Assembly (NCBI GenBank): GCA_018335195.1
Contig: JAGXKN010000022.1
Location: 1-55,560 of the forward strand
Direction of reading: 5' to 3'
Length of the DNA: 55,560 nt
From: Desulfobacterales bacterium
GTDB taxonomy: Bacteria > Desulfobacterota > Desulfobacteria > Desulfobacterales > Desulfosalsimonadaceae
Part shown: in pieces, positions 39,009 through 55,560 of the stretch
Layout: each line of letters begins with the position of its first letter
How positions within the stretch are numbered: the stretch's first letter is position 1
The notes under the pieces: generated by a model
The model's database searches: none
Seen by the model: the letters and a program-made list of their open reading frames with translations, nothing else
What the model was told of the DNA's origin: nothing
Made by a program: the position numbers and the translations under genes

Positions 39009-39020
39009 GTTCAATGCAAA

Positions 39021-39396: not shown

Positions 39397-39714
39397 ATGA
39401 ACAATACCAACAAGGGGTGCAGGCGGGTTGTTTTCCGGCTGACCGCGCCGGATGCCACCGAGGTTTGTGTCAGTGGGGATTTCAACAAGTGGGATGAACG
39501 CAGGCATCTTTTAAAACGAAAACCCGGCGGTTTCTGGGAAAAAACCGTGATGCTGCCGCCGGGCCGTTATGAGTACAAGTTCCGCGTGGACGGCAGCTGG
39601 CTGCTTGATCCCGCCAATGGTCTTTCATGTGAAAATTTATACGGCAGCCGGAACTCGGTGGTCGAAGTGGATGCCCGAGCCGCGTGGGTGCAAAAGAAAA
39701 GACCGCGGGGCTAA
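39397..39714 (+). CDS. Stand-alone glycogen-binding (CBM48/AMPK-beta-like) protein
   Basis: A 105-residue protein that is essentially one early-set carbohydrate-binding domain. VVFRLTAPDATEVCVSGDFN, the GxFWEKTVMLPPGRYEYKF strand pair and DPANGLSCENLYGSRNSVVEV match the CBM48 core with its aromatic sugar-contact residues. There is no catalytic domain. AAGGGGG precedes the ATG. Such small proteins may anchor glycogen metabolism or act as a regulatory adaptor; the context gives no partner. Confidence 0.85.
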   Translation: MNNTNKGCRRVVFRLTAPDATEVCVSGDFNKWDERRHLLKRKPGGFWEKTVMLPPGRYEYKFRVDGSWLLDPANGLSCENLYGSRNSVVEVDARAAWVQKKRPRG

Positions 39715-39722
39715 GCTCCCGG

Positions 39723-40346: not shown

Positions 40347-40538
40347 GCCTGTCCTCCGAATTGTACGAAATTTTCCGCAGTATATCCTTGTTCCCGGGCA
40401 ATACCGTTGATGTCTATCCGATTTTGTAAATATTGGTAAAAATAACATGCATGCATTTGAATGCAAATTTGTGCGGCAGCAGTCCGAAAAGGCGGCAAGT
40501 TTCTTGATTTTTGCGGAAATATCGGTCAATTTAAGAAA

Positions 40539-41146
40539 ATGAAACTCTTTATCGCCTTATCGCTGGTGATCGCGGCGGCATTCGGCGGCTACCATCTGAG
40601 TTTCCGCAGAATTGCCGGTCGCCGCAGCAGGTTTTCCCGGCTTCACCTGATCGGCCTGGAATTCCTGATCATTGGTCTGATTTTGGGCCCCGGGTTCCCC
40701 AGTATTCTCGATGAGACCACCATCGCCGAACTTGCGCCGTTTTCCGGCCTGGCCCTTGGGGGTCGGCCTGCTGGCCGGATTTCAGTTTGAGGCGGCCTTG
40801 ATCCGGCGGTTTCCCCCGCCTTTTTTTCTTGCCGTGTTGCTGGAAAGCGGGGTGGCGATTTTGATCGTGTTTTGCTGCATGTACCCGCTCCTGCCCCTGT
40901 TTATTCCCCTGCCCGGCGCTTTGCAGGTCATTGCCGCACTGGTGCTTTCCGCGGCCGCTGCATGCACCGCCCAGTACGGGCTGGTGCTCACCGGGACCGG
41001 ACATACAGCCACCGGGAACAACATTCTGCCTGCATACAGTGGTGCTGGCAGCAATTGCCATTAATCAGATTGCGGGGCCGGTGCTGTTTAAGGTGGCCCT
41101 GCACCGGGTCAACGAAGCCGGTCGCAGCCGACATGAATCGGTGTGA
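40539..41146 (+). pseudogene. Decayed cation/proton antiporter-like membrane protein gene
   Basis: Three reading frames must be joined to follow one protein. Frame 1 (40539 to about 40755) reads MKLFIALSLVIAAAFGGYHL and GLEFLIIGLILGPG. After a run of five G the second frame continues LGVGLLAGFQFEAALIRRF and several hydrophobic segments to about 41010. The third frame gives VVLAAIAINQIAGPVLFKVA to 41146. The joined order resembles the ends of a ~400-residue CPA-type antiporter with the middle lost. A sequencing error could explain the first shift but not the missing centre. Confidence 0.7.
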
Positions 41147-41232
41147 TTTGACGGATCAGGAAAGTTCGTATTATATTAAAATATATAATATGGGGTATTG
41201 GTAGGAAACGTCAAGCAAGGGGGTTTTGGCAA

Positions 41233-42804: not shown

Positions 42805-42813
42805 CAGCGGCAT

Positions 42814-43677
42814 ATGGATATATCCCGGATAAATACCCTCGGCAGCGGTCTGGCCCGTCCCGAGGGAGTCATGGCGCTTGCCGACGGTACGGTTTTTACA
42901 GCAGATGCGCGCGGATGCTGCGGCCGCATTCGTTCGGACGGAACCACCGGGTTTTTCGGGGATGTGGGCGGGGTGCCCAACGGCATCTGCCTGGATCGGC
43001 ACGGCAACTGCATCATTGCCAATATCGGAAACGGGCGGGTGCAGTCGCTGGCCCCGGGCGGAAAGCACACGGATCTGTTTGCCGAGGCAGACGGCAGGCC
43101 GGTAAATACGCCCAATTTTCCGTTTATGGACAGCCGGGACCGGCTCTGGGTTTCCAACTCCACAGCCGGGGACCTGGAAGCCGCACTCCGCAAACCTGCT
43201 GCAGACGGCTGCGTGGTTGTCATGGAAGGCCGCCGGGCCCGGGTTGCGGCAGACGGGCTTTATTTTGCAAACGGCATTGCCGTTGACGCGGAAGAAAAAT
43301 ACCTGTACGTGGCCGAAACCACCCGGCGGGCGATCACCCGGTTCCGCATCGGCCCGAAAGGCGACCTTGGCAGCCGGGAGGTCTATGGCCCCGAACCCCT
43401 GGGAGACCTCGGATTCCCCGACGGCATCGCCTTTGACGAAGTCGGCAATCTCTGGGTGACGTTTCCGGTCTGGGGGGCGGTGGGATACGTGGCCCCGGAC
43501 CGGCGGCTTCATATAGTGCTCGAGGATCCGGGCATGGAAGTGCTCAGGCGGCCCACCAACATCTGTTTCGGCGGCGAGGACCGCAAAACCGCTTTTATCG
43601 GCAGCCTGGAAGGCCAGGCAATTCCGTATTTCCGCGTGGAACACCCGGGCCAGGCCCTGGTCCATCAGCACCAGTGA
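42814..43677 (+). CDS. SMP-30/gluconolactonase-like beta-propeller protein
   Basis: A 287-residue six-bladed propeller of the SMP-30/LRE family. Blade repeats end in GTVFTADARG, GNCIIANIGNG, DRLWVSNST, KYLYVAETTRR and NLWVTFPVWG. Relatives hydrolyse sugar lactones using a metal ion; here the exact substrate is unknown. No signal peptide is visible, so it is cytoplasmic. It follows the DUF4301 gene by 9 bp. Confidence 0.87.
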   Translation: MDISRINTLGSGLARPEGVMALADGTVFTADARGCCGRIRSDGTTGFFGDVGGVPNGICLDRHGNCIIANIGNGRVQSLAPGGKHTDLFAEADGRPVNTPNFPFMDSRDRLWVSNSTAGDLEAALRKPAADGCVVVMEGRRARVAADGLYFANGIAVDAEEKYLYVAETTRRAITRFRIGPKGDLGSREVYGPEPLGDLGFPDGIAFDEVGNLWVTFPVWGAVGYVAPDRRLHIVLEDPGMEVLRRPTNICFGGEDRKTAFIGSLEGQAIPYFRVEHPGQALVHQHQ

Positions 43678-43683
43678 CTTCCC

Positions 43684-43893
43684 GATGGATTCGTAAAAAG
43701 CTGTTTATCTTGCCTGGGCGGTATTTTTGAAGAAAGTAAATCCGTAGCCATCCTGGCTGATCGGCGGCGCGAAAAAGGAATTTCCTCGCTCCAGGAGCCT
43801 CTTCGGGCCTCAATTTCCGTTCGGAAATCCGCTTTTCCGAACCGCCGCCAGGGCAACAAAGTGCAAATTTCGTTAGCGCGCAAAAAAAGCCTT
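43684..43893. repeat. ~200-bp dispersed repeat (family B), copy 2, opposite orientation
   Basis: Begins GATGGATTCGTAAAAAGCTG, the reverse complement of the shared repeat end. It contains TCGGCGGCGCGAAAAAGGAA and TTTCCTCGCTCCAGGAGCC, then ACCGCCGCCAGGGCAA. This is the inverse of 13263-13463. A TTAACCACTTAATACTTAAT tail lies at 43921-43940. Confidence 0.85.
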
Positions 43894-43935
43894 CATGGAA
43901 AATCGATTTCTTCTTAAAACTTAACCACTTAATAC

Positions 43936-45414
43936 TTAATCACTGTTTTCTTCCTTTGTCATTCCCGCAACCTTGCGTACCATGTCCCGCCGGGCGTTGA
44001 TGTCGTACTGGCTGGTAATGGCGATTTTTTCCATCATCGGCGAGCCGCCGCCGTGCAGGGCACCGTACATGGAGCATCCGCCCTTGGCGGATATGGCAAT
44101 ATCTCCGATGTGGCGCCAGAGCTGGGCCTGGTTTTCGTGGGACATGTTCGGGTTGCGCGTGGTGTACTTTACAGCCAGATCTTTTACTTCCGGATTGACG
44201 AATTCGCCTTCGTACGGGAAGGTTGCAGGCATGCCGCCGGAGATTTCCGCCAGGATCTCCATTTCGTGAAAGACCGACTCCCCGGTCAGGCATCTGCCCA
44301 CATTGCAGTATATGGAATGCGGGATCATGTTACCCGGGCCGTAGGGACGAAAGCCCACGCCCGGGATATATAGCTCAGGCTTGCCCTTGGCAGATGCTGT
44401 AAAACCGGCCGCGTATGCCAGCTCCGTGACCTTGATGATCTCTGCGAATTTGTCTGTGACGTGCTTGGCGCGGGCAATGCCGTTGCAGTCCGCGGCCAGG
44501 GCGCAGGTGCCGAGCATCAAATCTCCCAGTGCCGGCTTGCAGCCCGAGTAGCTGTGCCTGTGGAAAAGGGCGAACAAAAGTGCCAGGATGCCGCCGTGCT
44601 GGTTTTCGCCGCACAAAAACACCCGCTCCCAGGGCACGAACACATCGTCGAAAATCACGTAGGAGTCACAGCTGCCCGCGTTGAAGCCTTTCTTGAAATA
44701 CTTGCGGTCCCGGTAGTTGTGAATGGTCAGCAGGTGCTTGACCCCTTCCCAGTCGCCGGGCAGGGCAAAGGATACGGCATAATCGCTGTCTTCTTTCATA
44801 AGTGCACGCGTGGGGGTGACCAGGATCTCGTCGGCAATGGCGGCTTCGGATATGTGCACCTTGCAGCCCCGCACCACGATGCCATCGTCTCTTTTCTCCA
44901 CCACGCGCAGGTAAGAATCCGGATCCGGCTGCTGGCTGGGCCGTTTCATTCGCTCGCCCTTGACGTCGGTCTGGGCGCAGCAGCCCACCAGGTCCTCGCT
45001 TTGGAAGCGCGCAAGCCATTTCTTGAAGTTTTCGTGGTATTGTGTGGCCCCCTGGTTTTCGCGGTCGGCCTCGTAGGATACCGTGTAGATGGCATTTAAG
45101 GCGTCAACGCCCATGCACCGCTGGATGCATCCGCCCACTTCCTGGCACAGCAGGCGGGTCATGTCCTGCTTTTTGTGCAGGTCTTCCACGCTCTGGTGGA
45201 CATGGCAGAACCGGTTGATTTTTTTCCCGGTCAAGTGTGATGTAGCGGTGAGCAGGTCCTCGTGTTCCGGATTTGCGGCCATGTCAAATGTCATGCCCAT
45301 GACATTGATACTGGGAATCAGCCGCTCGTCGTCGCGGCCGATTTTCTCTCCGCCGATGTAGAGGTTGGATTTCATCCTGTGAATGCCGTCCACCCATTGC
45401 TGCTTGGTTCTCAT
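43936..45414 (-). CDS. 4-hydroxybutyryl-CoA dehydratase family protein, paralogue 1
   Basis: A 492-residue FAD/[4Fe-4S] protein of the HpaB/AbfD superfamily. Cys96 and Cys100 (GGCIQRC), His285 and Cys292 (FHRHSYSGC) match the spacing of the four cluster ligands of clostridial AbfD (Cys99, Cys103, His292, Cys299). That points to radical dehydration of an acyl-CoA, not oxygen-dependent hydroxylation, in an anaerobe. It is far closer to paralogue 2 than to paralogue 3. AAGGAG precedes the ATG. The substrate is unknown. Confidence 0.88.
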   Translation of the reverse strand: MRTKQQWVDGIHRMKSNLYIGGEKIGRDDERLIPSINVMGMTFDMAANPEHEDLLTATSHLTGKKINRFCHVHQSVEDLHKKQDMTRLLCQEVGGCIQRCMGVDALNAIYTVSYEADRENQGATQYHENFKKWLARFQSEDLVGCCAQTDVKGERMKRPSQQPDPDSYLRVVEKRDDGIVVRGCKVHISEAAIADEILVTPTRALMKEDSDYAVSFALPGDWEGVKHLLTIHNYRDRKYFKKGFNAGSCDSYVIFDDVFVPWERVFLCGENQHGGILALLFALFHRHSYSGCKPALGDLMLGTCALAADCNGIARAKHVTDKFAEIIKVTELAYAAGFTASAKGKPELYIPGVGFRPYGPGNMIPHSIYCNVGRCLTGESVFHEMEILAEISGGMPATFPYEGEFVNPEVKDLAVKYTTRNPNMSHENQAQLWRHIGDIAISAKGGCSMYGALHGGGSPMMEKIAITSQYDINARRDMVRKVAGMTKEENSD

Positions 45415-45436
45415 AATACCGTCTCCTTTTTCACCT

Positions 45437-45627
45437 AAATTGAGCGTTTCAGATTTTTAAAAGCAATTGATTTGAAAGGATAACATCATTTCTATGTTAA
45501 AAATCTGAAACCCTCCGGGATCTTCAATTTTACCGCATCTACTGCGTCAGATACAGCCTCGCATAGTTGACTATAGCGACTCTGCATCTTCCTTGTATCT
45601 GCGGCAAACTTGAAAATCGCTCAATTT
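45437..45627. repeat. 191-bp palindromic element between dehydratase paralogues
   Basis: AAATTGAGCG (45437-45446) and CGCTCAATTT (45618-45627) are perfect outer inverted repeats. Within it GTTTCAGATTTTTAA (45446-45460) pairs perfectly with TTAAAAATCTGAAAC (45497-45511). A second half contains GCATCTACTGCGTCAGATAC and GTATCTGCGGC arms. It lies in the 5' region of paralogue 1. It is most likely an intergenic repeat; a long-leader regulatory role is an alternative. Confidence 0.7.
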
Positions 45628-45835
45628 CGGTTTCATTTTGTTGTAGTAGAACCGGTTTGTGCAAATCGGTCCGCGAAAACCCGCATACGGGGGGATTCTT
45701 GGTTTGCCCTGTTTTCATCCGGCGATGAGAGTATAACGCCTGGCCTTTTTATGATTAAAGTGCGAAATGGAGTCATTTGTCAAAAAGGAGGTGAAATAGA
45801 ATTGCGGCGGGCTCCGGGGCGGTTCTCTCCTTCAC
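45628..45835. other. Intergenic, no gene recognised
   Basis: An AAAAAGGAGGTGAAATAG block near 45782 looks like a plus-strand ribosome binding site, but the only frame after it lacks a plausible protein and runs into a terminator. Nothing else is seen. Confidence 0.4.
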
Positions 45836-45876
45836 GCAAAAAAGGCACTCCGCCGGTTTTGCTGGCGGAGTGCCTT
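45836..45876 (-). terminator. Terminator of dehydratase paralogue 2
   Basis: AAGGCACTCCGCC (45842-45854) and GGCGGAGTGCCTT (45864-45876) form a perfect 13-bp stem. On the minus strand it is followed by a T run (45836-45843), 11 bases after the paralogue 2 stop codon. Confidence 0.9.
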
Positions 45877-45886
45877 CTGATTCCGA

Positions 45887-47350
45887 TTATTTTTCAATTC
45901 CGGCCAGTTTTTTGACAAGGCGCTTGCGTTCCTTGATGTCGTACTGGGAAGTAATGGCGATCTGCTCCATGATGGGCGAGCCCCCGCCGTGGTAATTGCC
46001 GTAGTTCATGCTTCCGGCCGCGCCGGTGCAGGTATTGTCGATAAAGTAGAGCCAGAACTTGATCTGGTCTTCAACCGGCACATCGGGATTGCGCTTGAGG
46101 TATTTTTCCAGGATCGGCTTGATTTCCGGATTGGTAAGATCCTGCTCAAACGGGAAGGTGGCCGGCAGGCCGCCGGCGATGTTGCAGAGCATTTCCTGCT
46201 CGTGGAAAACCGCCTCTCCTGTCAGGCACCGGCCCACATTGGCGTAGATGGAATCCGGGATGTAGCTTCCCGGTCCGTAGGGCGCCTTGCCCATGCCCGG
46301 GATATAAACCTCCGGCCTGCCGAAATCCGAAGCGGTATAGCCGGCAGCATAGCCGAGCTCGGTGACTTTGATGATTTCGGCAAACATTTCCCGCACATGG
46401 GAGGTCTTTTCAATGCCGTTGTATTCTGCGGCCTGGGCGGCCAGCCCGAGCAGAATATCGCCCAGAGCCGGCTTGCAGCCGGAGTAGCTGTGACGATGAA
46501 ACAGGGCGAAAAGCAGTGCGCAGATGCCGCCGTGGTCGTTTTCGCCGCACAGAAATACCCGGTCCCAGGGGATGAACGTATCCTCAAAAAGAATGTAGGA
46601 GTCGGTGTATCCGCCGTCAAATCCGCGCTGGAAATGCTGCCTGGGCCTTGCGTTGTGCGGATGGACTACCTGGATGAGCCCCTCCTGGTCTGCGGGCACG
46701 GCAAAAGCCACCGCGTATTCCTTTTCATTGGGACCGAGGGCCCGGGTGGGCACGACCAGGATTTCATCTGCAATGGATGCCTCGGAGATGTGCAGCTTGC
46801 AGCCCCGGACCACGATGCCGTCATTTCGTTTTTCCGTGACATGCAGGTACATGTCCGGATCGCTCTGCTCGGCGGGCCGCTTCATTCGTTCGCCCTTCAT
46901 GTCGGTCTGGGCACAGCATCCCACCAGGTCGTTGGTCTGGAAGTATTCCAGCCACTTCTGGAAGTTCTTGTGGTATTCCGTGTCGCCGTTGTTCATCTTG
47001 TCAGCCTCGTAGGAGACCGCATTGATGGCGTTGATTGCGTCAACCCCCATGCATCGCTGGATGCAGCCGCCGACCTTTTTGCAGAGATAGCGGGTCATGT
47101 CCTGCTTTTTGTGCAGGTCTTCAATGGACTGGTGTACATGGCAGAATCGATTTATGGTCTCCCCGGTGAGGTGCGACTTGGCGGTGCACAGTTCCGCGCC
47201 CTCAGGGCTGGCGGCCTCTTCAAAAGTCAATCCCATGACGTTTAAGGCGGGCATCTGCATTTCATCATCGCGGTCGATTTTCCCGCCGTTGTAATACAGA
47301 TTGCGCCGCAGCTTTTTCAATCCCTGGATATACTGCTCTTTGGTTCGCAT
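45887..47350 (-). CDS. 4-hydroxybutyryl-CoA dehydratase family protein, paralogue 2
   Basis: A 487-residue sister of paralogue 1: 66 of the first 100 positions are identical without gaps. The ligand set is Cys96, Cys100, His285, Cys292. HVHQSIEDLHKKQDMTR and FALFHRHSYSGCKPALGD are shared, marking a distinct subgroup from canonical AbfD. GGAGG precedes the ATG. It has its own promoter, an upstream palindrome and a strong terminator, so it can be expressed separately from both neighbours. Function inferred from family only. Confidence 0.88.
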   Translation of the reverse strand: MRTKEQYIQGLKKLRRNLYYNGGKIDRDDEMQMPALNVMGLTFEEAASPEGAELCTAKSHLTGETINRFCHVHQSIEDLHKKQDMTRYLCKKVGGCIQRCMGVDAINAINAVSYEADKMNNGDTEYHKNFQKWLEYFQTNDLVGCCAQTDMKGERMKRPAEQSDPDMYLHVTEKRNDGIVVRGCKLHISEASIADEILVVPTRALGPNEKEYAVAFAVPADQEGLIQVVHPHNARPRQHFQRGFDGGYTDSYILFEDTFIPWDRVFLCGENDHGGICALLFALFHRHSYSGCKPALGDILLGLAAQAAEYNGIEKTSHVREMFAEIIKVTELGYAAGYTASDFGRPEVYIPGMGKAPYGPGSYIPDSIYANVGRCLTGEAVFHEQEMLCNIAGGLPATFPFEQDLTNPEIKPILEKYLKRNPDVPVEDQIKFWLYFIDNTCTGAAGSMNYGNYHGGGSPIMEQIAITSQYDIKERKRLVKKLAGIEK

Positions 47351-47382
47351 GATGCCTCCGATATGGATTGTGAATGGTGTTT

Positions 47383-47405
47383 ATTGTTCGGTTGCACCGA
47401 ACAAT
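47383..47405. promoter_or_regulatory. Perfect palindrome in the leader of paralogue 2
   Basis: ATTGTTCGGT and ACCGAACAAT are perfect 10-base arms around TGC. It lies about 30-53 bases after the predicted start of transcription and 33 bases before the start codon. It could be a repressor operator or a leader hairpin. A half-site-like CTTGTTCGGATT is near 47479 beside the -35 box. Confidence 0.6.
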
Positions 47406-47442
47406 CGTTGTAATCTTGGATATAAAAAAAGAATTTTTCTTT

Positions 47443-47471
47443 AGAGTAAAACTCCAATATGATTCTGTCAA
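47443..47471 (-). promoter_or_regulatory. Promoter of dehydratase paralogue 2
   Basis: On the minus strand TTGACA (47466-47471) and TACTCT (47443-47448) are 17 bases apart. Confidence 0.6.
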
Positions 47472-47542
47472 TCATAATCTTGTTCGGATTAAAGAAAGAA
47501 TTATACAGGTGGATTTTGAAAAATCATTTGCAAATAGTGTAG

Positions 47543-47854
47543 TTATATGCAGGATTCCTGGAGTGCTTTTGCCGCCGTTTTTGCCAGGTCCTGCTTCTCA
47601 ACGGGCTCCCGATTCACCCGGAGGCCCTGGATGGAGATCACCGGTTCCGGGTCTGCCGACGGGCTTTCCTCATCCAGGCACGCATGCGCGCATCCGCATA
47701 CATGCAGCGTCAGATCCGCCGAAAGGTTGGGGTCGAAAGTGGTGTTCATCCGTCCCTTGAGAAGGGGGATCACCTGCTGCGCGGTTTCTCCCCGGTCAAT
47801 TTCCGGGTTGCATCCGCCGCAAAATCGAATTCTCACCAGGGCGGGACGGCTCAA
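47543..47854 (-). CDS. Small CGGCNP-motif cysteine protein
   Basis: A 103-residue protein with two cysteine clusters: CGGCNPEIDRG (Cys12, Cys15) and VCGCAHACL (Cys53, Cys55, Cys59). The pattern suggests a metal or redox role; related CGGCNP proteins of unknown function occur in anaerobes. The start is a TTG at 47854 with GGAGAAG six bases upstream. It lies 32 bp after paralogue 3, so it is probably its co-transcribed partner, perhaps in cluster handling or electron transfer; that role is speculative. Confidence 0.7.
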   Translation of the reverse strand: MSRPALVRIRFCGGCNPEIDRGETAQQVIPLLKGRMNTTFDPNLSADLTLHVCGCAHACLDEESPSADPEPVISIQGLRVNREPVEKQDLAKTAAKALQESCI

Positions 47855-47886
47855 TCCACTTCTCCGGATCCGGGTTCTTGGGGGTT

Positions 47887-49416
47887 TTACCCGTGGTGCT
47901 GCTCGGCAATTCTGGCGGCCACGTTTTTCCAGTAATCGGTTTCCGGGAGACCGACAATTTTTTCAAAGTATTTATCCGGCCGGATCCGGGCAATGGTTTC
48001 GGCAAGCGCCCGTTTTTGTTCAATTCCGCTTCTGCGCGCGATCATGATTTTCTGTGCGGCAGGCGATCCGGCCCCGTGCATGGCCTCGGGCAGGCCGGCG
48101 CCAACGGACATGTTTTCAATCAGCCGGAGCATTTTAAAGATGTCGTCCACATCCACACCTTCCCGGCCCCGGAAGCATTCATTTAAAACCTCCCTGAGTT
48201 CCGGCTGGGTCAGGTCCATCTCGGATGGCAGCGTGATGATTTTTCCGCCGGCAATATCCTGGGCAATCCGCATCCATTCATACACCATGCGGGTGATGTT
48301 GAGCTTGGTGACGTTGGCCAGCATGGGATTGATGTTATATGCCCCGGAAGGGGTTTTTGCACCTTCGTAGGAACATGCCAGGGCACAGGACCAGCAGGTT
48401 TCGGCCATTGAAATCATTTCCGTGAGCTTGTCCACGATATGCGATGCCCGGCCGACCCCGTGGGCGTCGGCAACCCAGTCAGAGGCGCCGATCACCACAT
48501 CTGCCAGGCCGACCTTGCACCCGCCGTAGTTGGATCGGTGATATCCCGCAAAGGTTTCCACGATCTGTCCGGCATACTCGTGTTCGCCTGCCATAAAGAC
48601 CCGTTCCCAGGGAACGAAGACATCCTTGAAAACAATGACCGCCTCTCCGCCCACGATGGCATACTTGGGGTTGCCCGAGTCCAGGGGGCTGTCAAGGCGC
48701 CGGGTGTCGTTGGTCTGGCGGGAAAAGATATACTTTACGCCCTCGGTGTTGACCGGAACGGCAAAGGATACCGCGTAATCCGCGTCATCGGCACCCATGG
48801 CCCGGGTGGGCAGCACGACAATCTCATGAGAGTTGATTGCGCCTGTGATATGGGCCTTGGCACCGCTGACAATGATGCCCTCGTTGGTTCTTTCCTTGAT
48901 GTGCAGGTAGGCATCCGGGCTGTTCTGCTTGGAAGGCCGCAGGCTTCGATCGCCCCGGGGATCAGTCATGGCGCCGGCGGACATCAGGTCCTTGGACTGC
49001 ACATGGGCAAGAAAATTTTTAAACTTTTCGTGATAATCGGTGCCGCGGTCCCGGTCCATGTCAAAGGTGGTGACATAAATGGCATTCAGGGCATCGAGCC
49101 CCACGCACCGCTGAAAGCAGGTACCGGTTTTCTGGCCCAAAAGCCGCATCATGCGTACTTTTTTTACCAGATCGTCGATGCTTTGATGAATGTGGGTAAA
49201 CCGGTTGACCGTCTCCCCGGTCAGGTTGGAGGTGGCGGTCATGATCTCCCGGTATTCCGGATCATTGGCCAGTTCATAGGTCATGGCCGCGGTGTGGATA
49301 TGGGGCTGGAACATGGGCTCTTCTGTCACCCGGGTGATTTTTTGGCCCATGAAATAAACTTCCAACTCCAGTTCGCGCAGAGACTCAATGTATGCTTGTC
49401 CGGTCATTAATGCCAT
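47887..49416 (-). CDS. 4-hydroxybutyryl-CoA dehydratase/vinylacetyl-CoA isomerase-like, paralogue 3
   Basis: A 509-residue member closer to canonical AbfD than the two other paralogues. Cys100 and Cys104 (CFQRCVG), His293 and Cys300 (YHRSNYGGCKVG) form the cluster-ligand set, offset by one from the clostridial numbering. AAGGAG supports the ATG at 49416. AbfD dehydrates 4-hydroxybutyryl-CoA to crotonyl-CoA through a ketyl radical. The neighbouring acyl-CoA ligase and SDR fit a CoA-ester route, but the exact substrate is not shown by the sequence. Confidence 0.87.
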   Translation of the reverse strand: MALMTGQAYIESLRELELEVYFMGQKITRVTEEPMFQPHIHTAAMTYELANDPEYREIMTATSNLTGETVNRFTHIHQSIDDLVKKVRMMRLLGQKTGTCFQRCVGLDALNAIYVTTFDMDRDRGTDYHEKFKNFLAHVQSKDLMSAGAMTDPRGDRSLRPSKQNSPDAYLHIKERTNEGIIVSGAKAHITGAINSHEIVVLPTRAMGADDADYAVSFAVPVNTEGVKYIFSRQTNDTRRLDSPLDSGNPKYAIVGGEAVIVFKDVFVPWERVFMAGEHEYAGQIVETFAGYHRSNYGGCKVGLADVVIGASDWVADAHGVGRASHIVDKLTEMISMAETCWSCALACSYEGAKTPSGAYNINPMLANVTKLNITRMVYEWMRIAQDIAGGKIITLPSEMDLTQPELREVLNECFRGREGVDVDDIFKMLRLIENMSVGAGLPEAMHGAGSPAAQKIMIARRSGIEQKRALAETIARIRPDKYFEKIVGLPETDYWKNVAARIAEQHHG

Positions 49417-49526
49417 TTCAGATAACTCCTTGTTGGATTCTTATGCAAAAGCGGTCAGTCTGCTATATGCATCTCATATCATAAAATTATCATAACCACG
49501 AAGTTTCAGAAGTCTATGAAGCAATT

Positions 49527-51203
49527 TTATCCGGAACCATCTGTCCGGAGTTCTCTGCGGAGAATTTTTCCGGTGGGGGTTTTCGGCAGCCGGTCCATGA
49601 TCTCGATTTTTCGCGGATATTTGTAGGCTGCCATGCGTTCCTTGCAAAACTGGATCAACGCCTCCGGCGTGACCTGGGCTGCATATTCTTCATTGATGGA
49701 AACAAAGGCCTTTACCGTTTCCCCCCGGTATTGGTCGGGTATGCCAACCACGGCCGCCTCTTTTACGCCCGGATGCTGGTAAAGCACGTCTTCAACATCT
49801 CTGGGCCACACCTTGTATCCGGACACGTTGATCAGATCCTTTTTCCGGTCCACGATATAGCACCAACCCTGTTTATCGATCTTGGCCACATCGCCTGTAT
49901 AAAACTTTCCGTCCCGGATCGCCTTTGCGGTTTCCTCCGGCTTTTGCCAGTAGCCCTGCACAATGCTGGGTCCGCGCAGCACCAGTTCTCCCTGCTGGCC
50001 CGGCGGGAGGATTTTTTCCGGATCATTTACGTCTGCAATCCATGCTTCCAGCCCGGGAATCACCAATCCCACGGACAACGCCCCGGACTCCTCGTCCACC
50101 GGCCCTTCCTCTCCTAGCGGTGTAATCGTGGCTGGCGAGGTGCTTTCCGTGAGACCGTAGACGTTATAAATTTTTAACCCCATGGTTTCCTGGAACTTTT
50201 TGACTGTTCCGGGTGCAACTGGAGCGCCGCCGCTATACGCCTTCTGAAAATTTGAAACATCACGGTTTTTATGATCTGGATGGTCCTGTAGTGCGATATA
50301 TGCAGTAATTGGGGCTACTGTGAATGTGATACGGTATTTTTCAATTAATCGGAGCACGTCTGCAGGATCAAATCGGTTATGCAGGGCCACGGGGATGCCA
50401 AGGTGAAATGCAACGGCTTCATGGGCCACAATGCCTGTAATGTGGAACAGCGGGGCCGCGCCAAGCACGGCATCCGACCGGTTGAGCCGGCAGGCTGATT
50501 CGTAAACACAGCAGGTGTAATCGATATTTGCATGGGAGACCATGGCGCCTTTGGGCGGCCCCGTGGTACCGGAAGTGTAAACGAGATAAGCAAGATCGCC
50601 GGCTGCCGGCGGGATGTCTTCAGGGGTGCGGTCTCCGGCCTCTTGTACAAGCGCCAGGAAATCATAGGTTTCTTCGAATTGCTGTTTTTGTAACCCTTCC
50701 AGCTGTTTTGGCGGATTTTCTGTCTCGCCGAGAAAATCCAGAGCAGATGTGGTAATTACAGGCAGATTGCCGGATATGGGTTTGATCGCTTTTTCAAAAA
50801 GTCCCTCCTCGCATATGATAATTCTGGCATCGCTGTCGGCGAGCAGGTGATCGATTTCGCGGGCGGTATACATGGGATTGACCGGAACCACGATGGCACC
50901 GCGCATCCAGGCGGCCAGCGTGGCGATTACGGCCTGGGGAATATTTTGCAGCACGAGCATGAGCCGATCCTGTTTGCCCAGCCCTGTTTCTGCGAGTTTG
51001 ACTGCCAGGGCGCAAGCCATCTGCTCGATTTTGCCGTAAGAAAATGATGTGTCAAAATAGTGAATACAGGGCGCATCCGGCTCAGATCCGGAGATCCGCT
51101 TGAATTTGTCAAGCACGCTTTCCCGTTTTTGCGGCAGGTCCGGGGAGAACCACGCCGGGTAGCTCTTGAGCCAAGGCTTGGCATCGTATGCGGTCTTCAT
51201 CAT
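49527..51203 (-). CDS. AMP-forming acyl-CoA synthetase
   Basis: An ANL-superfamily ligase of 558 residues that activates a carboxylic acid with ATP and CoA. P-loop YTSGTTGPPKG at 209-219, YGLTES, YTGDVAKID and the catalytic PKTPTGKILRR (Lys546) are intact. Substrate range cannot be read reliably; annotation pipelines often call such proteins long-chain fatty-acid CoA ligase. AAGGAGG precedes the ATG pair at 51203. It sits between the SDR and paralogue 3 in the liv-dehydratase gene series. Confidence 0.92.
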   Translation of the reverse strand: MMKTAYDAKPWLKSYPAWFSPDLPQKRESVLDKFKRISGSEPDAPCIHYFDTSFSYGKIEQMACALAVKLAETGLGKQDRLMLVLQNIPQAVIATLAAWMRGAIVVPVNPMYTAREIDHLLADSDARIIICEEGLFEKAIKPISGNLPVITTSALDFLGETENPPKQLEGLQKQQFEETYDFLALVQEAGDRTPEDIPPAAGDLAYLVYTSGTTGPPKGAMVSHANIDYTCCVYESACRLNRSDAVLGAAPLFHITGIVAHEAVAFHLGIPVALHNRFDPADVLRLIEKYRITFTVAPITAYIALQDHPDHKNRDVSNFQKAYSGGAPVAPGTVKKFQETMGLKIYNVYGLTESTSPATITPLGEEGPVDEESGALSVGLVIPGLEAWIADVNDPEKILPPGQQGELVLRGPSIVQGYWQKPEETAKAIRDGKFYTGDVAKIDKQGWCYIVDRKKDLINVSGYKVWPRDVEDVLYQHPGVKEAAVVGIPDQYRGETVKAFVSINEEYAAQVTPEALIQFCKERMAAYKYPRKIEIMDRLPKTPTGKILRRELRTDGSG

Positions 51204-51224
51204 TGCCTCCTTGTATTTTTCGGC

Positions 51225-51989
51225 CTACCAGATGGTCCAGCCGCCGTCTATGAGAATGCGCTGACCGGTAATAAAATCCGAGGCGGGGCTTGCCAGGAAA
51301 ATCACGATGCCTTCGAGTTCCTCGAGTTTGCCCCATCGACCCATGGGCGTGCGTTCGTTGATGAAATTAAAGCGCTCCTTGTCCTCTGAGATCTGTTTGA
51401 CCATTTCCGTTTCAAAGTAAGTGGGCGCAATGGCGTTAACCCGCACGCCCTTCTGGGCCCACTCGATTGCCATAACCTTTGTCATTTGATTCACACCGCC
51501 CTTGGATGAGGCGTATGCGAGCTGGTTGGCCAGGGCCACGGATCCGAAAATCGAACTGATATTGATGACTTTCCCCCAGCCCCGCTCAATCATCTGGGGC
51601 ACGAGGGCCTGGGTGACCAGATAGTAGCCCTTTAAATTGGTGTTAAGCACGCGGTCCCATTCCTCTTCCGGATACTCCAGCACCGGCACGCGGTGATTGG
51701 TCCCAGCATTGTTGACCAGGATATCGATTTTGCCGAAGTGATCCAGGATTTCATCTGCGCCTTTCTGGACAGTCTGTCTGGAAGTCACTTCCAGCTCAAA
51801 TCCGGCGCAATCGCGTCCGAGATCTTTAATCTTTCCGACGACCCGATCGATGTCCGGGCGTTTTCTCCCGCAGATAGCCACGTCTGCCCCGGCTTTGGCC
51901 AGCGCTGTTGCCGCGGTTTCGCCGAGCCCCTTGGAACTGCCGGTGACGACTGCTGTTTTTCCCGTCAAGTCGAACTGTTCTAAACCCAT
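51225..51989 (-). CDS. SDR-family oxidoreductase
   Basis: A 254-residue short-chain dehydrogenase/reductase. The NAD(P) motif TGSSKGLG is at 16-23, NNAG at 93-96, and the catalytic Ser145/146, Tyr159 and Lys163 (YASSK) are in place. Similar proteins act as 3-hydroxyacyl or alcohol dehydrogenases. The start at ATG 51989 has GAGAAAGG upstream; longer in-frame versions overlap the preceding gene. It could oxidise or reduce the CoA-ester of the operon's substrate (inference). Confidence 0.92.
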   Translation of the reverse strand: MGLEQFDLTGKTAVVTGSSKGLGETAATALAKAGADVAICGRKRPDIDRVVGKIKDLGRDCAGFELEVTSRQTVQKGADEILDHFGKIDILVNNAGTNHRVPVLEYPEEEWDRVLNTNLKGYYLVTQALVPQMIERGWGKVINISSIFGSVALANQLAYASSKGGVNQMTKVMAIEWAQKGVRVNAIAPTYFETEMVKQISEDKERFNFINERTPMGRWGKLEELEGIVIFLASPASDFITGQRILIDGGWTIW

Positions 51990-52030
51990 AACCCCTTTCT
52001 CCGATTTTGATTGGATGGATTTTATTCGTC

Positions 52031-52588
52031 TTATTGCGCTGCCGGCGAAAATTCCAGATTCGTGCCGGCTGCCTCGAGTTCTTCGAGTAGGATTTCGGCG
52101 GCCCAGCGGGCTCCCCGACCGACCACTTGCGGGCATTTGTGGCTGTGTCCGCCGTCCTGCACGAATATTTTAAAAGCTTCCGGATCATACAGCGGGTAGG
52201 AACGGCCCATGACCTGATGCTGAATCCCTGCGCATATGCCGCTGCCGTATTCTGCAGCAAAGCGATCCTGGAGACGTTTGGCCAACCTGTAGGATGTGAA
52301 TCGTTTGCCTTCAGGGTCTCCAAAGGCCTCCAGTTCGCGGCCGAAAAAAAGCCCGATGGCCAGCACCCCTCCTGCCAGAGCGCCGCAGGTGCCTTCTGTG
52401 GAAAGCCCCACGCCGCCGCCCAGGCCGGAGGCCGCCCGGAAGGCTTCGGGATTTCGGATTTGCGGGAAGGTTCCCATCAGCGCGGCCAGAGCACACTGGG
52501 CGCATCCGTGGTAGTCCTGCTCGAATCGGTGGGCACTTGCTTCGGTATCCGCCAGGAGTGCGTCTTTTGAGACAAAGGCGAGTTTCAT
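52031..52588 (-). CDS. C_GCAxxG_C_C-type redox-like protein
   Basis: A 185-residue protein with the family layout: Cys29 and Cys32 (HGCAQC), Cys68 in TEGTCGALAGGVLAIGL, Cys119 (SGICAG) and Cys152 (CPQVV). The family name describes the conserved pattern; its function is not established, though the cysteines suggest a metal or thiol role. It lies between livF and the SDR, so it travels with the transporter-catabolism unit. Confidence 0.82.
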   Translation of the reverse strand: MKLAFVSKDALLADTEASAHRFEQDYHGCAQCALAALMGTFPQIRNPEAFRAASGLGGGVGLSTEGTCGALAGGVLAIGLFFGRELEAFGDPEGKRFTSYRLAKRLQDRFAAEYGSGICAGIQHQVMGRSYPLYDPEAFKIFVQDGGHSHKCPQVVGRGARWAAEILLEELEAAGTNLEFSPAAQ

Positions 52589-52617
52589 GGCTGAATTCTC
52601 TTTTGTATCAGACAGGT

Positions 52618-53304
52618 TTATAATGCGAGAAATTTCTCGATTTCTTCCTTTTTGATTTCTTCCTTGGTTCCGGAGCGTTTGATGCGCCCGCCGTCCATGA
52701 TGTAAATTCTGTCTGCAATGCTTAAAATAAAGGCCAGATTCTGGTCTGCCACGATCAGGGAAATTTTTTCCTCCAGCTTATTGATGGCTGCGGCGATGTC
52801 CTTGACCAGAGAAGGCGCAAGGCCCTCGGAGGGCTCGTCGATAATCAGCATGTCCGGGTTCATTAGCAACCCCTTGGAAATGCCTACCATTTTTCTTTCT
52901 CCGCCGCTCAGGTGCGCCCCTTTTCTTTTGAGAATGTTTTTGATTTTCGGAAAAAGCTCGAACACGTAGTCCCGGGAAAACGCGCCTTCGCGTTCGGATA
53001 CTTTGAAATTGTCTTCCACCGATAGGTTGTGAAAAACCCCGCCGTTGTCCGGAACAAAGGTCAGCCCGGATTTTGCGATCCGATGGGGTTGCAGGTCGCT
53101 AATATCCTGGTTTTTAAAAAACACCCGGCTCTCTTTTTTGTCCACATATCCCATTACGCTTTTCAGGGTCGTGGTTTTGCCCACGCCGTTTCTTCCCACC
53201 ACAACCGCTACTTCTCCGGGATTGACGGAAAAGTCGATGTCAAACGTGATCTGGCTTCTGCCGTAAAAAGCGTTCAGCGATTCCACTTTCAGAATTTCGT
53301 TCAT
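52618..53304 (-). CDS. livF: ABC transporter ATP-binding protein LivF
   Basis: One of two ATPases of a branched-chain amino acid-type (HAAT) importer. Walker A GRNGVGKTTT, signature LSGGERKM and Walker B LIIDEPSEGLAP are present in 228 residues. It follows livG with a TAATG overlap. HAAT importers also carry other small acids, so the substrate need not be an amino acid. Confidence 0.95.
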   Translation of the reverse strand: MNEILKVESLNAFYGRSQITFDIDFSVNPGEVAVVVGRNGVGKTTTLKSVMGYVDKKESRVFFKNQDISDLQPHRIAKSGLTFVPDNGGVFHNLSVEDNFKVSEREGAFSRDYVFELFPKIKNILKRKGAHLSGGERKMVGISKGLLMNPDMLIIDEPSEGLAPSLVKDIAAAINKLEEKISLIVADQNLAFILSIADRIYIMDGGRIKRSGTKEEIKKEEIEKFLAL

Positions 53305-54017
53305 TAGACTTCCTCTTTCAGGTAAATCTTGCGCACGAACGCATTGGACTTGATTTCCTCCGGACTGCCCTGGGCGATAACTTCGCCTTCATTCATTACG
53401 ATGATCCGGTCCGCGATTCGAAACACGGTTTCCATGTCGTGTTCAATGATGGCGGTGATCATGTTTTTGCCTTTAAAACGCTGCACGGTTTCAATGATCT
53501 TTTCCTTTTCTTCCATGCCCACACCTGCGGTGGGCTCGTCTAAAAAAAGCACCTTCGGCGCCACGGCGATCGCCATGGCCATTTCCAGCAGCTTTTGATC
53601 CCCGTGGGAGATGTTTACCGCCCGGGTATCCCGGAACCGGGCCAGGCCGTAGGTGTCAAGCAGCGCATCTGCGGCCTCTTCCACTTCGGTTTTGTGCCGG
53701 GCATAGAGCAGGGGAACCCGGATGTTTTCACGAACAGTGAGTTCCGGGAAAATGTTGACGATTTGAAATGTGCGGGCGATGCCAAGTTGGACCCGCTTGT
53801 GGGAAGGCTGTTTTGTGACGTTTCGGCTGTCAAAGAACAAGCCTCCGCTGTCCGGGGGAAACATCCCCGTGCAGACATTGACAAGGGTGGTCTTGCCTGC
53901 GCCGTTGGGACCGATAATTGCAGAGATGAGGTCTTCGTCGAGCTCCGTGCTGACCTGGTTTAAGGCGGTGAATTTGCCAAAGGCTTTGGTGATGTTTTCG
54001 ATTCTGAAGCTGGCCAT
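53304..54017 (-). CDS. livG: ABC transporter ATP-binding protein LivG
   Basis: Second ATPase of the HAAT importer, 237 residues. Walker A GPNGAGKTTL, a signature variant ISHGDQKLLEMA, Walker B VLFLDEPTAGVG and the switch His in IIEHDME are visible. The signature differs from the usual LSGG but this is common in LivG proteins. It lies 8 bp downstream of livM. Confidence 0.94.
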   Translation of the reverse strand: MASFRIENITKAFGKFTALNQVSTELDEDLISAIIGPNGAGKTTLVNVCTGMFPPDSGGLFFDSRNVTKQPSHKRVQLGIARTFQIVNIFPELTVRENIRVPLLYARHKTEVEEAADALLDTYGLARFRDTRAVNISHGDQKLLEMAMAIAVAPKVLFLDEPTAGVGMEEKEKIIETVQRFKGKNMITAIIEHDMETVFRIADRIIVMNEGEVIAQGSPEEIKSNAFVRKIYLKEEV

Positions 54018-54025
54018 GGTTTTTT

Positions 54026-54940
54026 TTATTCTCCCCTGCGAAGCATTTTCAATGATCCCACGATGCCGCCCCTGAAAAACAGGACCACCACCAGGATGAC
54101 GATGCCCAGTATAAGCTGCCAGAAAAGGGTGTATTTCGTGATGATTTCCAGTGCCAGCACATATATGAGAATGCCGAACATGGGCCCGGAGAAAAAGGCG
54201 GGTCCCCCGATCAGGGAGGCGATCACCGGGACCGCGGAAAATGTCCAGTGGGAAACCGTGGGATCAATGCACCCGTCTAAGAAGAGATACAAGATGCCGG
54301 CAATCCCGGTGAAAAAAGCGGACAGCATCATGGCATACATTCGGTATTTGACCACGGAATGCCCGGAGAAGCTGACCCTTGTTTCATTTTCCCGGATGCT
54401 TTCCAGCAGCAGCCCGAAATTGGAATGCAAAATTTTATAGATGGCAAAAAGGGATATGATCACGATCGGAAGGATCAGATAATAGTACTGGTGCAGGCTC
54501 ATCATCCTGGGGATCCCGGTGATGCCGTCTTCCCCGCCGGTCACGGATCGCCACTTCATGACCACGCCCCAGAATAGCATGGAAAGCGACAGCGTGATCA
54601 GGGCAAAGTGGATATCCTTGTGCCGCAGGGAAAGGAATCCGGTTACCGCGCTTAAGACCAGGACCGCCAAAACTGCCAGGATCAGGCTCGCCCAGACCGG
54701 CAGGCTGCATTCGGTCAGGCATATGGCCACTGTATAGGCCGCGCCGGAAAAAAACAGCGCATGCCCGAAGGAAAGCAGCCCCGTGAATCCCAGCAGAATA
54801 TTGAAAGCCACGGCGAATAAGGCAAGGATAAGAATTTTGCTGAGCAGGTATACATTATAATTGCCCATGAATATCGGAAGGGCCAGCAGCAGTAGTATGA
54901 TCGCCGCGGCTGCGCCGAGATTTTTATAATTTTTCACCAT
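54026..54940 (-). CDS. livM: Branched-chain amino acid-type permease LivM
   Basis: Inner-membrane permease subunit with about 8-10 hydrophobic segments. AFNILLGFTGLLSFGHALFF is the LivM signature, and the C-terminal LFFRGGIVG matches the family. The ATG at 54940 has GGAGGGG upstream and gives 304 residues; it overlaps the livH end by 17 bases. Confidence 0.94.
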   Translation of the reverse strand: MVKNYKNLGAAAAIILLLLALPIFMGNYNVYLLSKILILALFAVAFNILLGFTGLLSFGHALFFSGAAYTVAICLTECSLPVWASLILAVLAVLVLSAVTGFLSLRHKDIHFALITLSLSMLFWGVVMKWRSVTGGEDGITGIPRMMSLHQYYYLILPIVIISLFAIYKILHSNFGLLLESIRENETRVSFSGHSVVKYRMYAMMLSAFFTGIAGILYLFLDGCIDPTVSHWTFSAVPVIASLIGGPAFFSGPMFGILIYVLALEIITKYTLFWQLILGIVILVVVLFFRGGIVGSLKMLRRGE

Positions 54941-55560
54941 ACAACCCCTCCGGCTTGACAATTAGTACCGCTGTAAAGAGAAGATACGGAATCGCCAGTG
55001 TAAAGCTTGGAATTAAAAGTGTTCCCATTGCTTCGCCGATCCCCACGATCAGTGCGGCGATAAACGCCCCGGGTATGCTGCCGAGGCCGCCCATGACGGT
55101 AATGATAAAGGCATAAATGATGATGTGTTCCCCCATGCCGGAGGAAGCCGAGGAAATGGGCAGTACCAGCGCTCCGCCGAAACCCGCCAGGCAGGAGCCC
55201 AGCAGAAAGGCAGAGGCGTAGAGCAGATTCGGGTTGATCCCGGAGGCCTGTGCCAGTTCGATATCCGAAGTCAGGGCGTTGATCATCTTGCCCCACATGG
55301 TTTTCGTAATCACAAGGTACATGAGAATGGCGATAAATATACCCAGCAGGATGATAAGAATCGAGAAGTTCGGGCATATCCGTCCCATGATTTTGGTATG
55401 CCCCAGACTCAGGGCCGGCATCATCCGTGGCACCGTGCCCCACACGTATCGGGTGATGTCATTGAAAATCAGGACCAGCCCGTATGTTAAAATGAGCTGG
55501 AACAGGATGTGGAGGGCATAGACGCGCTGGATGAAAAGCCTCTCGCAGATGACCCCGCCC
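54924..55560 (-). CDS. livH: Branched-chain amino acid-type permease LivH (N-terminus outside window)
   Basis: The reading frame stays open to the window edge, so the gene is cut by the window, not truncated in the genome. The visible part includes LHILFQLILTYGLVLIFND near the edge and GGLGSIPGAFIAALIVGIGE and the C-terminal KPEGLYGEKL, typical of LivH. Substrate-binding protein (livK) would be expected upstream but lies outside. Confidence 0.94.
   Translation of the reverse strand, partial: GGVICERLFIQRVYALHILFQLILTYGLVLIFNDITRYVWGTVPRMMPALSLGHTKIMGRICPNFSILIILLGIFIAILMYLVITKTMWGKMINALTSDIELAQASGINPNLLYASAFLLGSCLAGFGGALVLPISSASSGMGEHIIIYAFIITVMGGLGSIPGAFIAALIVGIGEAMGTLLIPSFTLAIPYLLFTAVLIVKPEGLYGEKL

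What the first reader, a model, noticed from the sequence alone, without database searches (positions are those of the whole stretch)
43936..55560. Transporter-ligase-SDR cluster with three 4-hydroxybutyryl-CoA dehydratase paralogues
One strand carries a HAAT importer, a C_GCAxxG_C_C protein, an SDR, an acyl-CoA ligase and three AbfD-superfamily proteins, two of them a distinct subgroup. All three keep the four ligands of the AbfD [4Fe-4S] cluster, so they are probably anaerobic radical dehydratases/isomerases rather than monooxygenases. The order fits import, CoA activation, redox chemistry and dehydration of an unidentified hydroxy- or unsaturated acid. Three such enzymes in one locus is more than a standard 4-hydroxybutyrate route needs. 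The pathway assignment is inference.
Basis: partly seen in the sequence, partly recalled or inferred. Interest (0 to 1): 0.8.

Follow-up and report, generated by a model that had tools for sequence, protein, structure and literature searches.

The report
Anaerobic acyl-CoA operon, altered radical dehydratases
A gene cluster in an anaerobic bacterium carries one enzyme of the radical 4-hydroxybutyryl-CoA dehydratase type, two cousins from a widespread, apparently unstudied branch that kept the iron-sulfur cluster site but lost a key catalytic residue, and a small unnamed cysteine-rich protein that often travels with such enzymes.

Summary
The genes are there, but "three AbfD paralogues" is really 1 + 2. 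P3 (47887-49416) is AbfD-type: all four cluster ligands plus T190, E257, Y296, K300 and E455, inside the AbfD clade. P1 and P2 belong to a separate subfamily (48 of 48 tree rows one clade, 100/100). 127 of 127 aligned subfamily rows keep the ligands, Y296 and K300, but have Q149, H294, G460 and no Glu455. They are not HpaB monooxygenases and most likely not 4-hydroxybutyryl-CoA dehydratases. The subfamily is common in Desulfobacterota and occurs in Bacillota, Chloroflexota and Asgard/Bathyarchaeota. In 38 of 71 loci a beta-oxidation-type gene lies within 5 kb, against 1 of 20 control stretches. It has no Pfam, NCBIfam or PDB-sequence match. In 297 genomes, 34 of 57 matches lie within 600 bp of an AbfD-type gene, all on the same strand. 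Best reading: an anaerobic operon for uptake, CoA activation and flavin/Fe-S radical elimination or isomerisation of a hydroxy- or unsaturated acid. Substrate unknown; P1/P2 chemistry and the helper role are inferred.

The parts
43936..45414 (-). P1: HpaB/AbfD-superfamily protein of the Glu455-less subfamily (492 aa)
   Evidence: Pfam HpaB_N/HpaB; ligands kept, E455->G; tree; AF2 model nearest 6vjr/1u8v, Z 49
45887..47350 (-). P2: second member of the Glu455-less subfamily (487 aa)
   Evidence: 64.1% identical to P1, but in another clade within the subfamily
47543..47854 (-). small CGGCN...CGCxxAC protein (103 aa), putative [4Fe-4S] helper
   Evidence: ORF; no Pfam/NCBIfam/PDB sequence match; linked with AbfD-type genes; AF2 model pLDDT 84.7
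47887..49416 (-). P3: AbfD-type protein with the recalled mechanistic residues (509 aa), four residues shorter just before Glu455
49527..51203 (-). acyl-CoA ligase, AMP-forming
   Evidence: PF00501+PF13193; 63% identical relative beside SDR, P1-like and P3-type genes in G012
51225..51989 (-). SDR oxidoreductase (ORF 51225-52136; probable start 51989)
   Evidence: Pfam matches begin at residues 60-68; 71% identical relative beside the ligase in G012
52031..52588 (-). C_GCAxxG_C_C putative redox protein
   Evidence: PF09719 E 7.8e-22; TIGR01909 50 bits over its cut-off 47.4
52618..53304 (-). LivF-like ABC ATPase
53304..54017 (-). LivG-like ABC ATPase
54026..54961 (-). LivM-like permease
   Evidence: PF02653
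54924..55559 (-). LivH-like permease, cut by the contig end
   Evidence: PF02653; contig length 55560

Best explanation
A catabolic operon of an anaerobic Desulfobacterota. A carboxylic acid (hydroxylated or unsaturated, not identified) is imported by the HAAT system, activated to its CoA thioester by the ligase, and handled at the hydroxy/oxo level by the SDR. P3 works like AbfD: a flavin/[4Fe-4S] enzyme that removes water from, or moves the double bond of, a 4-hydroxyacyl- or 3-enoyl-CoA. It is served by the small CGGCN protein, probably a [4Fe-4S] helper for cluster assembly, protection or electron supply. P1 and P2 are a separate subfamily that keeps the cluster ligands, the radical-site tyrosine and the lysine, but has no Glu455 and a rebuilt proton relay (Q149, H294, G460; in P1/P2 also S190, D257). 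They most likely do a redox-neutral flavin/Fe-S radical isomerisation or elimination on another acyl-CoA of the same route, feeding beta-oxidation. Shown: gene content, residues, phylogeny, linkage statistics. Inferred: cofactors, reactions, substrate, helper role.
For: Domains. P1/P2/P3 residues mapped on AbfD; 127 of 127 subfamily rows (fetched by likeness) with ligands, Y296 and K300, and without E455. Subfamily one clade, 100/100; AbfD-type one clade, 100/99. P1 model fits 6vjr (Z 49.3) and 1u8v (Z 49.1) better than HpaB and relatives (Z 35.4-41.2). 38 of 71 subfamily loci have at least one of thiolase, HBD, ECH, ACAD, DCR within 5 kb against 1 of 20 control stretches (p 4.8e-5); two or more: 20 of 71 against 0 of 20. 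Same-genus G012 pairs SDR (71%) and ligase (63%) with a P1-like and a P3-type gene and a TRAP importer instead of HAAT. CGGCN matches: 34 of 57 within 600 bp of an AbfD-type gene, 34 of 34 on the same strand, 26 downstream and 8 upstream; 50 of 53 CGGCN genomes have an AbfD-type match against 78 of 297 overall (Fisher 1e-32).
Against: 33 of 71 subfamily loci show none of the beta-oxidation genes, among them all seven archaeal loci in that list, so the link is not universal. The window itself has only the ligase of that panel. No substrate-binding protein and no 4-hydroxybutyrate genes are among the ORFs scanned. P1 is 472 bp from P2 and may be a separate unit. CGGCN also occurs away from AbfD: 23 of 57 matches not within 600 bp, and a second copy in this genome lies between a crotonase-like ORF and a ligase-like ORF. 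Seven of nine other genomes with a subfamily gene had no CGGCN match. Bound Fe-S and FAD were not tested.
Confidence: 0.5

Rival explanations
1. All three are ordinary 4-hydroxybutyryl-CoA dehydratases with redundant or paralogous roles in 4-hydroxybutyrate/GABA/succinate use.
For: All keep the four cluster ligands, Y296 and K300; the P1 fold is nearest to 4HBD.
Against: P1/P2 lie outside the AbfD clade and lack E455; none of the ten ORFs scanned is a CoA transferase or an aldehyde or iron-type alcohol dehydrogenase, unlike Cetobacterium, where the abfD-like gene sits with an acetyl-CoA hydrolase/transferase-family gene and 4-hydroxybutyrate dehydrogenase. The same genome has, on C57, an enzyme nested with 1u8v and 6vjr in a 10-row clade that leaves P3 out.
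Confidence: 0.12
2. P1/P2 are non-catalytic or regulatory partners (subunits) of P3, forming mixed tetramers; the loss of E455 reflects loss of dehydration.
For: P1/P2 and P3-type genes are neighbours in the window and in part in f40 genomes; E455 is absent in 127 of 127 subfamily rows.
Against: Many fetched stretches carry a subfamily gene with no P3-type gene in view; the ligands, Y296 and K300 are invariant, which a dead subunit would not need.
Confidence: 0.13
3. P1/P2 are O2-dependent aromatic monooxygenases of the HpaB family.
For: Pfam names HpaB_N/HpaB.
Against: Far below the curated cut-offs (HpaB-1: 148.2 and 139.3 against 480.2 bits; HpaB-2: 55.5 and 39.2 against 885.2); ligands present; clade separate; hosts named include Desulfosporosinus, Dehalococcoidia and Asgard archaea, anaerobes by general knowledge; no reductase among the ten ORFs.
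Confidence: 0.03
4. The cluster is a mixed neighbourhood without one pathway: HAAT/ligase/SDR belong together, the P genes to something else.
For: P1-P2 gap of 472 bp; P2-like genes stand alone beside a 523-aa ORF in several genomes of the genus.
Against: SDR+ligase+P3-type+P1-like recur in G012; same strand and mostly short gaps from LivH to P3.
Confidence: 0.2

Closest known systems
4-Hydroxybutyryl-CoA dehydratase AbfD, Clostridium aminobutyricum (PDB 1u8v)
   Same: Fold (Z 49.1 for P1), four cluster ligands, Y296, K300; P3 also T190, E257, E455 and clade
   Different: P1/P2 lack E455, have Q149/H294/G460 and an 11-residue insert at about P1 348-358; P3 is four residues shorter before E455 and has no 4-hydroxybutyrate gene among the ORFs scanned
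Nitrosopumilus 4HBD / vinylacetyl-CoA isomerase (PDB 6vjr)
   Same: First structural match of the P1 model (Z 49.3, tied with 1u8v), same ligands
   Different: 33.7% identity to P1; has E455
HpaB 4-hydroxyphenylacetate 3-monooxygenase (2yyg, 9lft)
   Same: Overall fold (Z about 40), Pfam family
   Different: No cluster ligands; O2 chemistry (general knowledge); NCBIfam cut-offs not met
IspG (GcpE) C-terminal [4Fe-4S] domain (3noy)
   Same: First VIA match of the CGGCN model (Z 8.4, rmsd 2.8, 85 residues, chain 257-351); CxxC...GC order of cysteines
   Different: Sequence profile match not significant (probability 3%, E 0.016); Z is near the noise level; CGGCN stands alone and has a further Cys near where IspG has (recalled) a Glu ligand
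BbuA gamma-butyrobetainyl-CoA TMA-lyase (PMC8364193, passages read)
   Same: Flavin-dependent C4 elimination from an acyl-CoA in an acyl-CoA-dehydrogenase-like fold
   Different: No Fe-S cluster mentioned in the passages read; about 10% identity to 4HBD by that paper

Membership tests
AbfD / 4-hydroxybutyryl-CoA dehydratase (P3) | cluster ligands C99, C103, H292, C299 | tested here: met
AbfD / 4-hydroxybutyryl-CoA dehydratase (P3) | T190, E257, Y296, K300, E455 (importance recalled, mainly from Zhang 2015) | tested here: met
AbfD / 4-hydroxybutyryl-CoA dehydratase (P3) | placed in the AbfD clade | tested here: met
   100/99
AbfD / 4-hydroxybutyryl-CoA dehydratase (P3) | 4-hydroxybutyrate genes beside it | tested here: not met
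   none among the ten ORFs; the contig ends 6 kb upstream
AbfD / 4-hydroxybutyryl-CoA dehydratase (P3) | activity, FAD and [4Fe-4S] content | not testable with these tools
   needs protein
AbfD / 4-hydroxybutyryl-CoA dehydratase (P1, P2) | four cluster ligands, Y296, K300 | tested here: met
AbfD / 4-hydroxybutyryl-CoA dehydratase (P1, P2) | catalytic E455 | tested here: not met
   G in P1 and P2; no Glu in 127 of 127 subfamily rows
AbfD / 4-hydroxybutyryl-CoA dehydratase (P1, P2) | inside the AbfD clade | tested here: not met
   separate clade 100/100
HpaB monooxygenase (P1, P2, P3) | NCBIfam HpaB-1/HpaB-2 curated cut-off | tested here: not met
   HpaB-1 best 169.3 (P3) against 480.2 bits; HpaB-2 best 101.9 (P3) against 885.2
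HpaB monooxygenase (P1, P2, P3) | no Fe-S ligands | tested here: not met
   ligands present
HAAT importer | two ATPases and two permeases | tested here: met
   (LivH cut by contig end)
HAAT importer | substrate-binding protein | tested here: inconclusive
   not among the ORFs scanned in the cluster; the contig ends inside LivH
IspG-like [4Fe-4S] domain (CGGCN protein) | sequence profile similarity | tested here: inconclusive
   E 0.016, probability 3%; three column shuffles gave E 0.27-0.41
IspG-like [4Fe-4S] domain (CGGCN protein) | same fold | tested here: inconclusive
   Z 8.4, the first row, but the next, unrelated rows reach 7.4; Foldseek found no match at E<=0.001

The most novel reading that the evidence does not exclude
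The Glu455-less subfamily is a new class of flavin/[4Fe-4S] radical acyl-CoA enzymes with a reaction other than 4-hydroxybutyryl-CoA dehydration, spread through anaerobic bacteria and Asgard/Bathyarchaeota and open to misannotation as 4HBD or HpaB. The CGGCN protein is a dedicated [4Fe-4S] partner of AbfD-type enzymes that has not been recognised.
Probability: 0.35. Interest if true: 0.8.

Novelty: new variant of a known kind. Interest (0 to 1): 0.6.

Why it matters
[quoted passage not shown] A large subfamily that keeps the cluster ligands but has no Glu455 could give false positives and can be told apart by a few residues. It also offers natural variants that test how the flavin/Fe-S radical is made without Glu455. 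If the CGGCN protein is an Fe-S helper, it may bear on producing AbfD-type enzymes in foreign hosts.

Tried and rejected
Rejected: HpaB monooxygenase reading. Rejected: P1/P2 as a recent tandem duplication; in the tree P1 groups with L124 (79%) and L055, P2 in another 13-row starred set. Promoter scan: 8 found against 6.5 expected; terminator-like sites 18 against 12.0 (sd 3.8); no use. Rfam over 38000-55560: only a tRNA. Plasmid collection: 201 records with a P1 match, all under 60% identity. Foldseek for the CGGCN model: no match at E<=0.001. IspG kinship of CGGCN: suggestive only. A first neighbourhood count on 50 deduplicated loci, which had lost many well-flanked ones, gave a weaker contrast: two or more categories (ligase counted, 6 kb, E<=1e-20) in 13 of 50 against 1 of 20. 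The 20 control stretches come from 12 genomes of the window's phylum, while the 71 also include other phyla. The CGGCN family in canonical 4-hydroxybutyrate stretches: one ORF in Fusobacterium vincentii about 3 kb after the abfD-like gene, none found in 25 kb of sequence around that of Cetobacterium. A Bacillota-wide CGGCN search was not done (searches failed). Not in print: (abfD, small protein) found no paper and (CGGC, 4-hydroxybutyryl, dehydratase) one lake CO2-fixation paper, not opened; searches found none; searches listed no paper whose title or abstract start speaks of the subfamily. Passages only were read of PMC13101534, PMC12316311, PMC8364193, PMC7078158, PMC3949148 and PMC9686372. 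The library lacks most subscription journals.
Full report
WHAT IS THERE. The window is one whole contig of 55,560 bases in a genome of 3,285,447 bases and 99 contigs, 99.74% complete. On the minus strand, in order of transcription: LivH (cut by the contig end), LivM, LivG, LivF, a C_GCAxxG_C_C protein, an SDR, an AMP-forming acyl-CoA ligase, P3, a small CGGCN protein, P2, P1. Gaps are 41 bp or less from LivH to the ligase, then 110 bp ligase-P3, 32 bp P3-CGGCN, 192 bp CGGCN-P2 and 472 bp P2-P1 (coordinates, SDR from 51989). The SDR ORF is listed from 52136, but its two best Pfam matches begin at residues 60 and 68, so 51989 is the likelier start.

P3 VERSUS P1/P2. I aligned 158 distinct full-length relatives from the loci held then, plus four PDB references, and read out the AbfD positions. 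AbfD 1u8v: C99 Q101 C103 M149 T190 E257 H292 R293 Q294 Y296 C299 K300 E455 H458 A460. P3 has all of these except Ser at 294. P1 and P2 keep C99, Q101, C103, H292, R293, Y296, C299, K300 and H458, but have Q149, S190, D257, H294, G455 and G460. Of the 162 rows, 24 bear the ligands and E455 (two of them the references 1u8v and 6vjr), 11 lack the ligand set (two of them the HpaB references), and 127 belong to the P1/P2 type. All 127 keep C99, C103, H292, C299, Y296 and K300; all have Q149, H294 and G460; none has Glu at 455 (G, A, S or D); 190 is S or T and 257 is D, E or H. The rows were fetched by likeness to P1/P2, so these counts describe the subfamily and not its share in nature. From memory (Zhang et al. 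2015, AEM 81:1071; not held; reference 50 in PMC8364193), the AbfD variants E455Q, E257Q and Y296W had no measurable activity, and Y296, E455, E257 and T190 were proposed to make the flavin semiquinone. The ligand numbers themselves are recalled from Martins et al. 2004. The subfamily thus keeps the cluster ligands and the tyrosine but not the recalled base. P3 is four residues shorter just before E455, as are two of the other 12 AbfD-type rows of the tree, one in G012 and one in G285.

TREE. On 69 rows (80% redundancy cut, HpaB 9lft included), IQ-TREE gives the subfamily as one side of a branch (48 of 48 rows, 100/100, all 200 bootstrap trees) and the AbfD-type rows as another (13 of 13, 100/99), P3 among them. 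The eight rows without the ligand set are not resolved as one group, and HpaB 9lft has a very long branch. P1 groups with L124 and L055; P2 lies in another 13-row starred set, so the pair is not a recent duplication. A predicted P1 structure (39 rows, mean pLDDT 93.1) fits the 4HBD structures 6vjr (Z 49.3, rmsd 2.0, 475 residues) and 1u8v (Z 49.1, rmsd 1.7, 472 residues) better than HpaB and its oxygenase relatives (Z 35.4-41.2).

SPREAD. A P1 search at E<=1e-108 matched 55 of 395 genomes of the phylum, the window's own included; in 44 the best row is 60% or more identical, in 11 it is 40-51%, and some of those are AbfD-type. Within the window's family the 60%-or-more type was found in the genus and in one partial gene outside it.

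NEIGHBOURS. In same-genus G009 the order P3 (cut by the contig end), CGGCN, P2, P1 is kept; G015 has CGGCN, P2, P1 without a P3 in the fetched stretch. In G012 a P1-like gene (48%) is followed by DctQ, DctM, a universal stress protein, an SDR 71% and a ligase 63% identical to those of the window, DctP, and a P3-type gene (51%). In family f40, G381 and G346 have a P3-type gene, a CGGCN gene, a TetR gene, a subfamily gene and an SDR in one stretch; G065 has the P3-type, CGGCN, subfamily and SDR genes; G285 has two subfamily and two AbfD-type genes with an enoyl-CoA hydratase and a protein of the domain make-up of 2,4-dienoyl-CoA reductase (my naming from PF00724+PF07992). In family f17 (annotated on L105) the subfamily gene sits with acyl-CoA dehydrogenases, enoyl-CoA hydratases, 3-hydroxyacyl-CoA dehydrogenases, thiolase and HAAT-like permeases. 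Counted over loci with more than 5 kb on both sides: at least one of thiolase, 3-hydroxyacyl-CoA dehydrogenase, enoyl-CoA hydratase, acyl-CoA dehydrogenase or dienoyl-CoA reductase in 38 of 71 against 1 of 20 control stretches (Fisher p 4.8e-5); two or more in 20 of 71 against 0 of 20 (p 0.0034). At least four of the 71 repeat a contig; without them 35 of 67 and 20 of 67. An earlier, stricter count was weaker: 13 of 50 against 1 of 20. So the link to acyl-CoA degradation is real but not universal: 33 of 71 loci show none, among them all seven archaeal loci in the list. In the window only the ligase of that panel is present.

THE MISSED GENE. The 103-aa ORF at 47543-47854 has no Pfam match at E<=0.01, no NCBIfam match at E<=1, and its profile matches no PDB sequence at E<=1. 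The window's protein and five relatives share CGGCN, DR and CGCxxAC; a wider set of 31 keeps C9, G10, G11, C12, R18, G51, C52 and C56. A profile of those six, all taken from stretches with subfamily genes, gave 57 matches in 53 of 297 genomes of the phylum. A query with the AbfD-type enzyme of contig C57 over a draw of the same size, with the same handles, gave matches in 78 genomes at E<=1e-120; I call these AbfD-type by score and did not check E455 in each. Of the 57, 34 lie within 600 bp of an AbfD-type gene, all 34 on the same strand, 26 downstream and 8 upstream; 4 more lie within 5 kb; 19 do not. 50 of the 53 CGGCN genomes have an AbfD-type match, against 28 of the other 244 (Fisher 1e-32). 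Of nine further genomes with a subfamily gene, two had a CGGCN match and seven had none: in Desulfallas a CGNCN relative lies just before an ORF whose start reads like AbfD (residue 455 lies beyond the stretch); in a Bathyarchaeote no such ORF is in view. In Fusobacterium vincentii a CGGCN ORF lies about 3 kb after the abfD-like gene, in a stretch that also holds what looks to me like a NifU-type ORF (read by eye, not searched); around the Cetobacterium gene none was found. A second CGGCN protein of this genome lies between what look like an enoyl-CoA-hydratase ORF and a ligase ORF, so the family is not bound to AbfD alone (those two names are read by eye).

WHAT THE SMALL PROTEIN MAY BE. The AF2 model of 100 residues from five sequences has mean pLDDT 84.7. 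The first structural match by VIA is the C-terminal part of IspG (3noy_D 257-351, Z 8.4, rmsd 2.8, 85 residues); the next, unrelated rows reach 7.4 and Foldseek has nothing at E<=0.001. From memory the IspG cluster is held by C265, C268, C300 and E307 in that very stretch, and the ranges put CGGC on C265-C268 if the alignment starts without a gap. The profile comparison is end to end but weak (E 0.016, probability 3%; three column shuffles E 0.27-0.41). I take it as a likely stand-alone [4Fe-4S] protein, about 0.6, kinship to IspG unproven.

MECHANISM. Most likely: uptake, CoA activation, redox at a hydroxyl or oxo group by the SDR, and flavin/[4Fe-4S] radical chemistry. P3 as in AbfD: alpha deprotonation, one-electron oxidation by flavin, loss of the beta proton, and elimination of the gamma hydroxyl or protonation (mechanism recalled from the AbfD literature). 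For P1/P2, Y296, K300 and the ligands are there but the recalled base for Y296 is not; the conserved H294 close to it could take over. That is inference. I favour isomerisation or another elimination on a further acyl-CoA, because these genes sit with beta-oxidation and dienoyl-CoA genes in part of the genomes. BbuA (PMC8364193, passages read) shows that a flavin enzyme of this fold class can eliminate another C4 group.

VERDICT. A real, partly conserved anaerobic acyl-CoA operon; one AbfD-type enzyme; two members of a widespread, apparently unstudied subfamily; and a small protein linked with AbfD-type genes that the scanned libraries do not name. New variant of a known kind. Substrate unknown.

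Noticed in passing
G000 C61:32311-32574 (L250): Second CGGCN protein of the same genome, between what look like an enoyl-CoA-hydratase ORF and an AMP-ligase ORF; the same arrangement shows in G008 (L245), G011 (L248) and G012 (L246).
   Followed up: partly
G000 C84 (L053 11454-12890) and C95 (L054 5939-7387): Two HpaB-superfamily proteins without the cluster cysteines in the same genome; role unknown.
   Followed up: partly
window 41233-42804: A 523-aa ORF that recurs near subfamily genes in six genomes of the genus, the window's included (cluster c12); not annotated here.
   Followed up: no
L117, L118, L119: Subfamily members (about 49% identical to P1) in family f23 with no beta-oxidation gene of the panel within 5 kb (a Mg-chelatase-like and a glycosyltransferase gene annotated in L117).
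   Followed up: no
L235 5454-5771: A NifU-type-looking ORF directly after the abfD-like gene in Fusobacterium vincentii (read by eye).
   Followed up: no
window 38935-39005: tRNA gene near the cluster.
   Followed up: no
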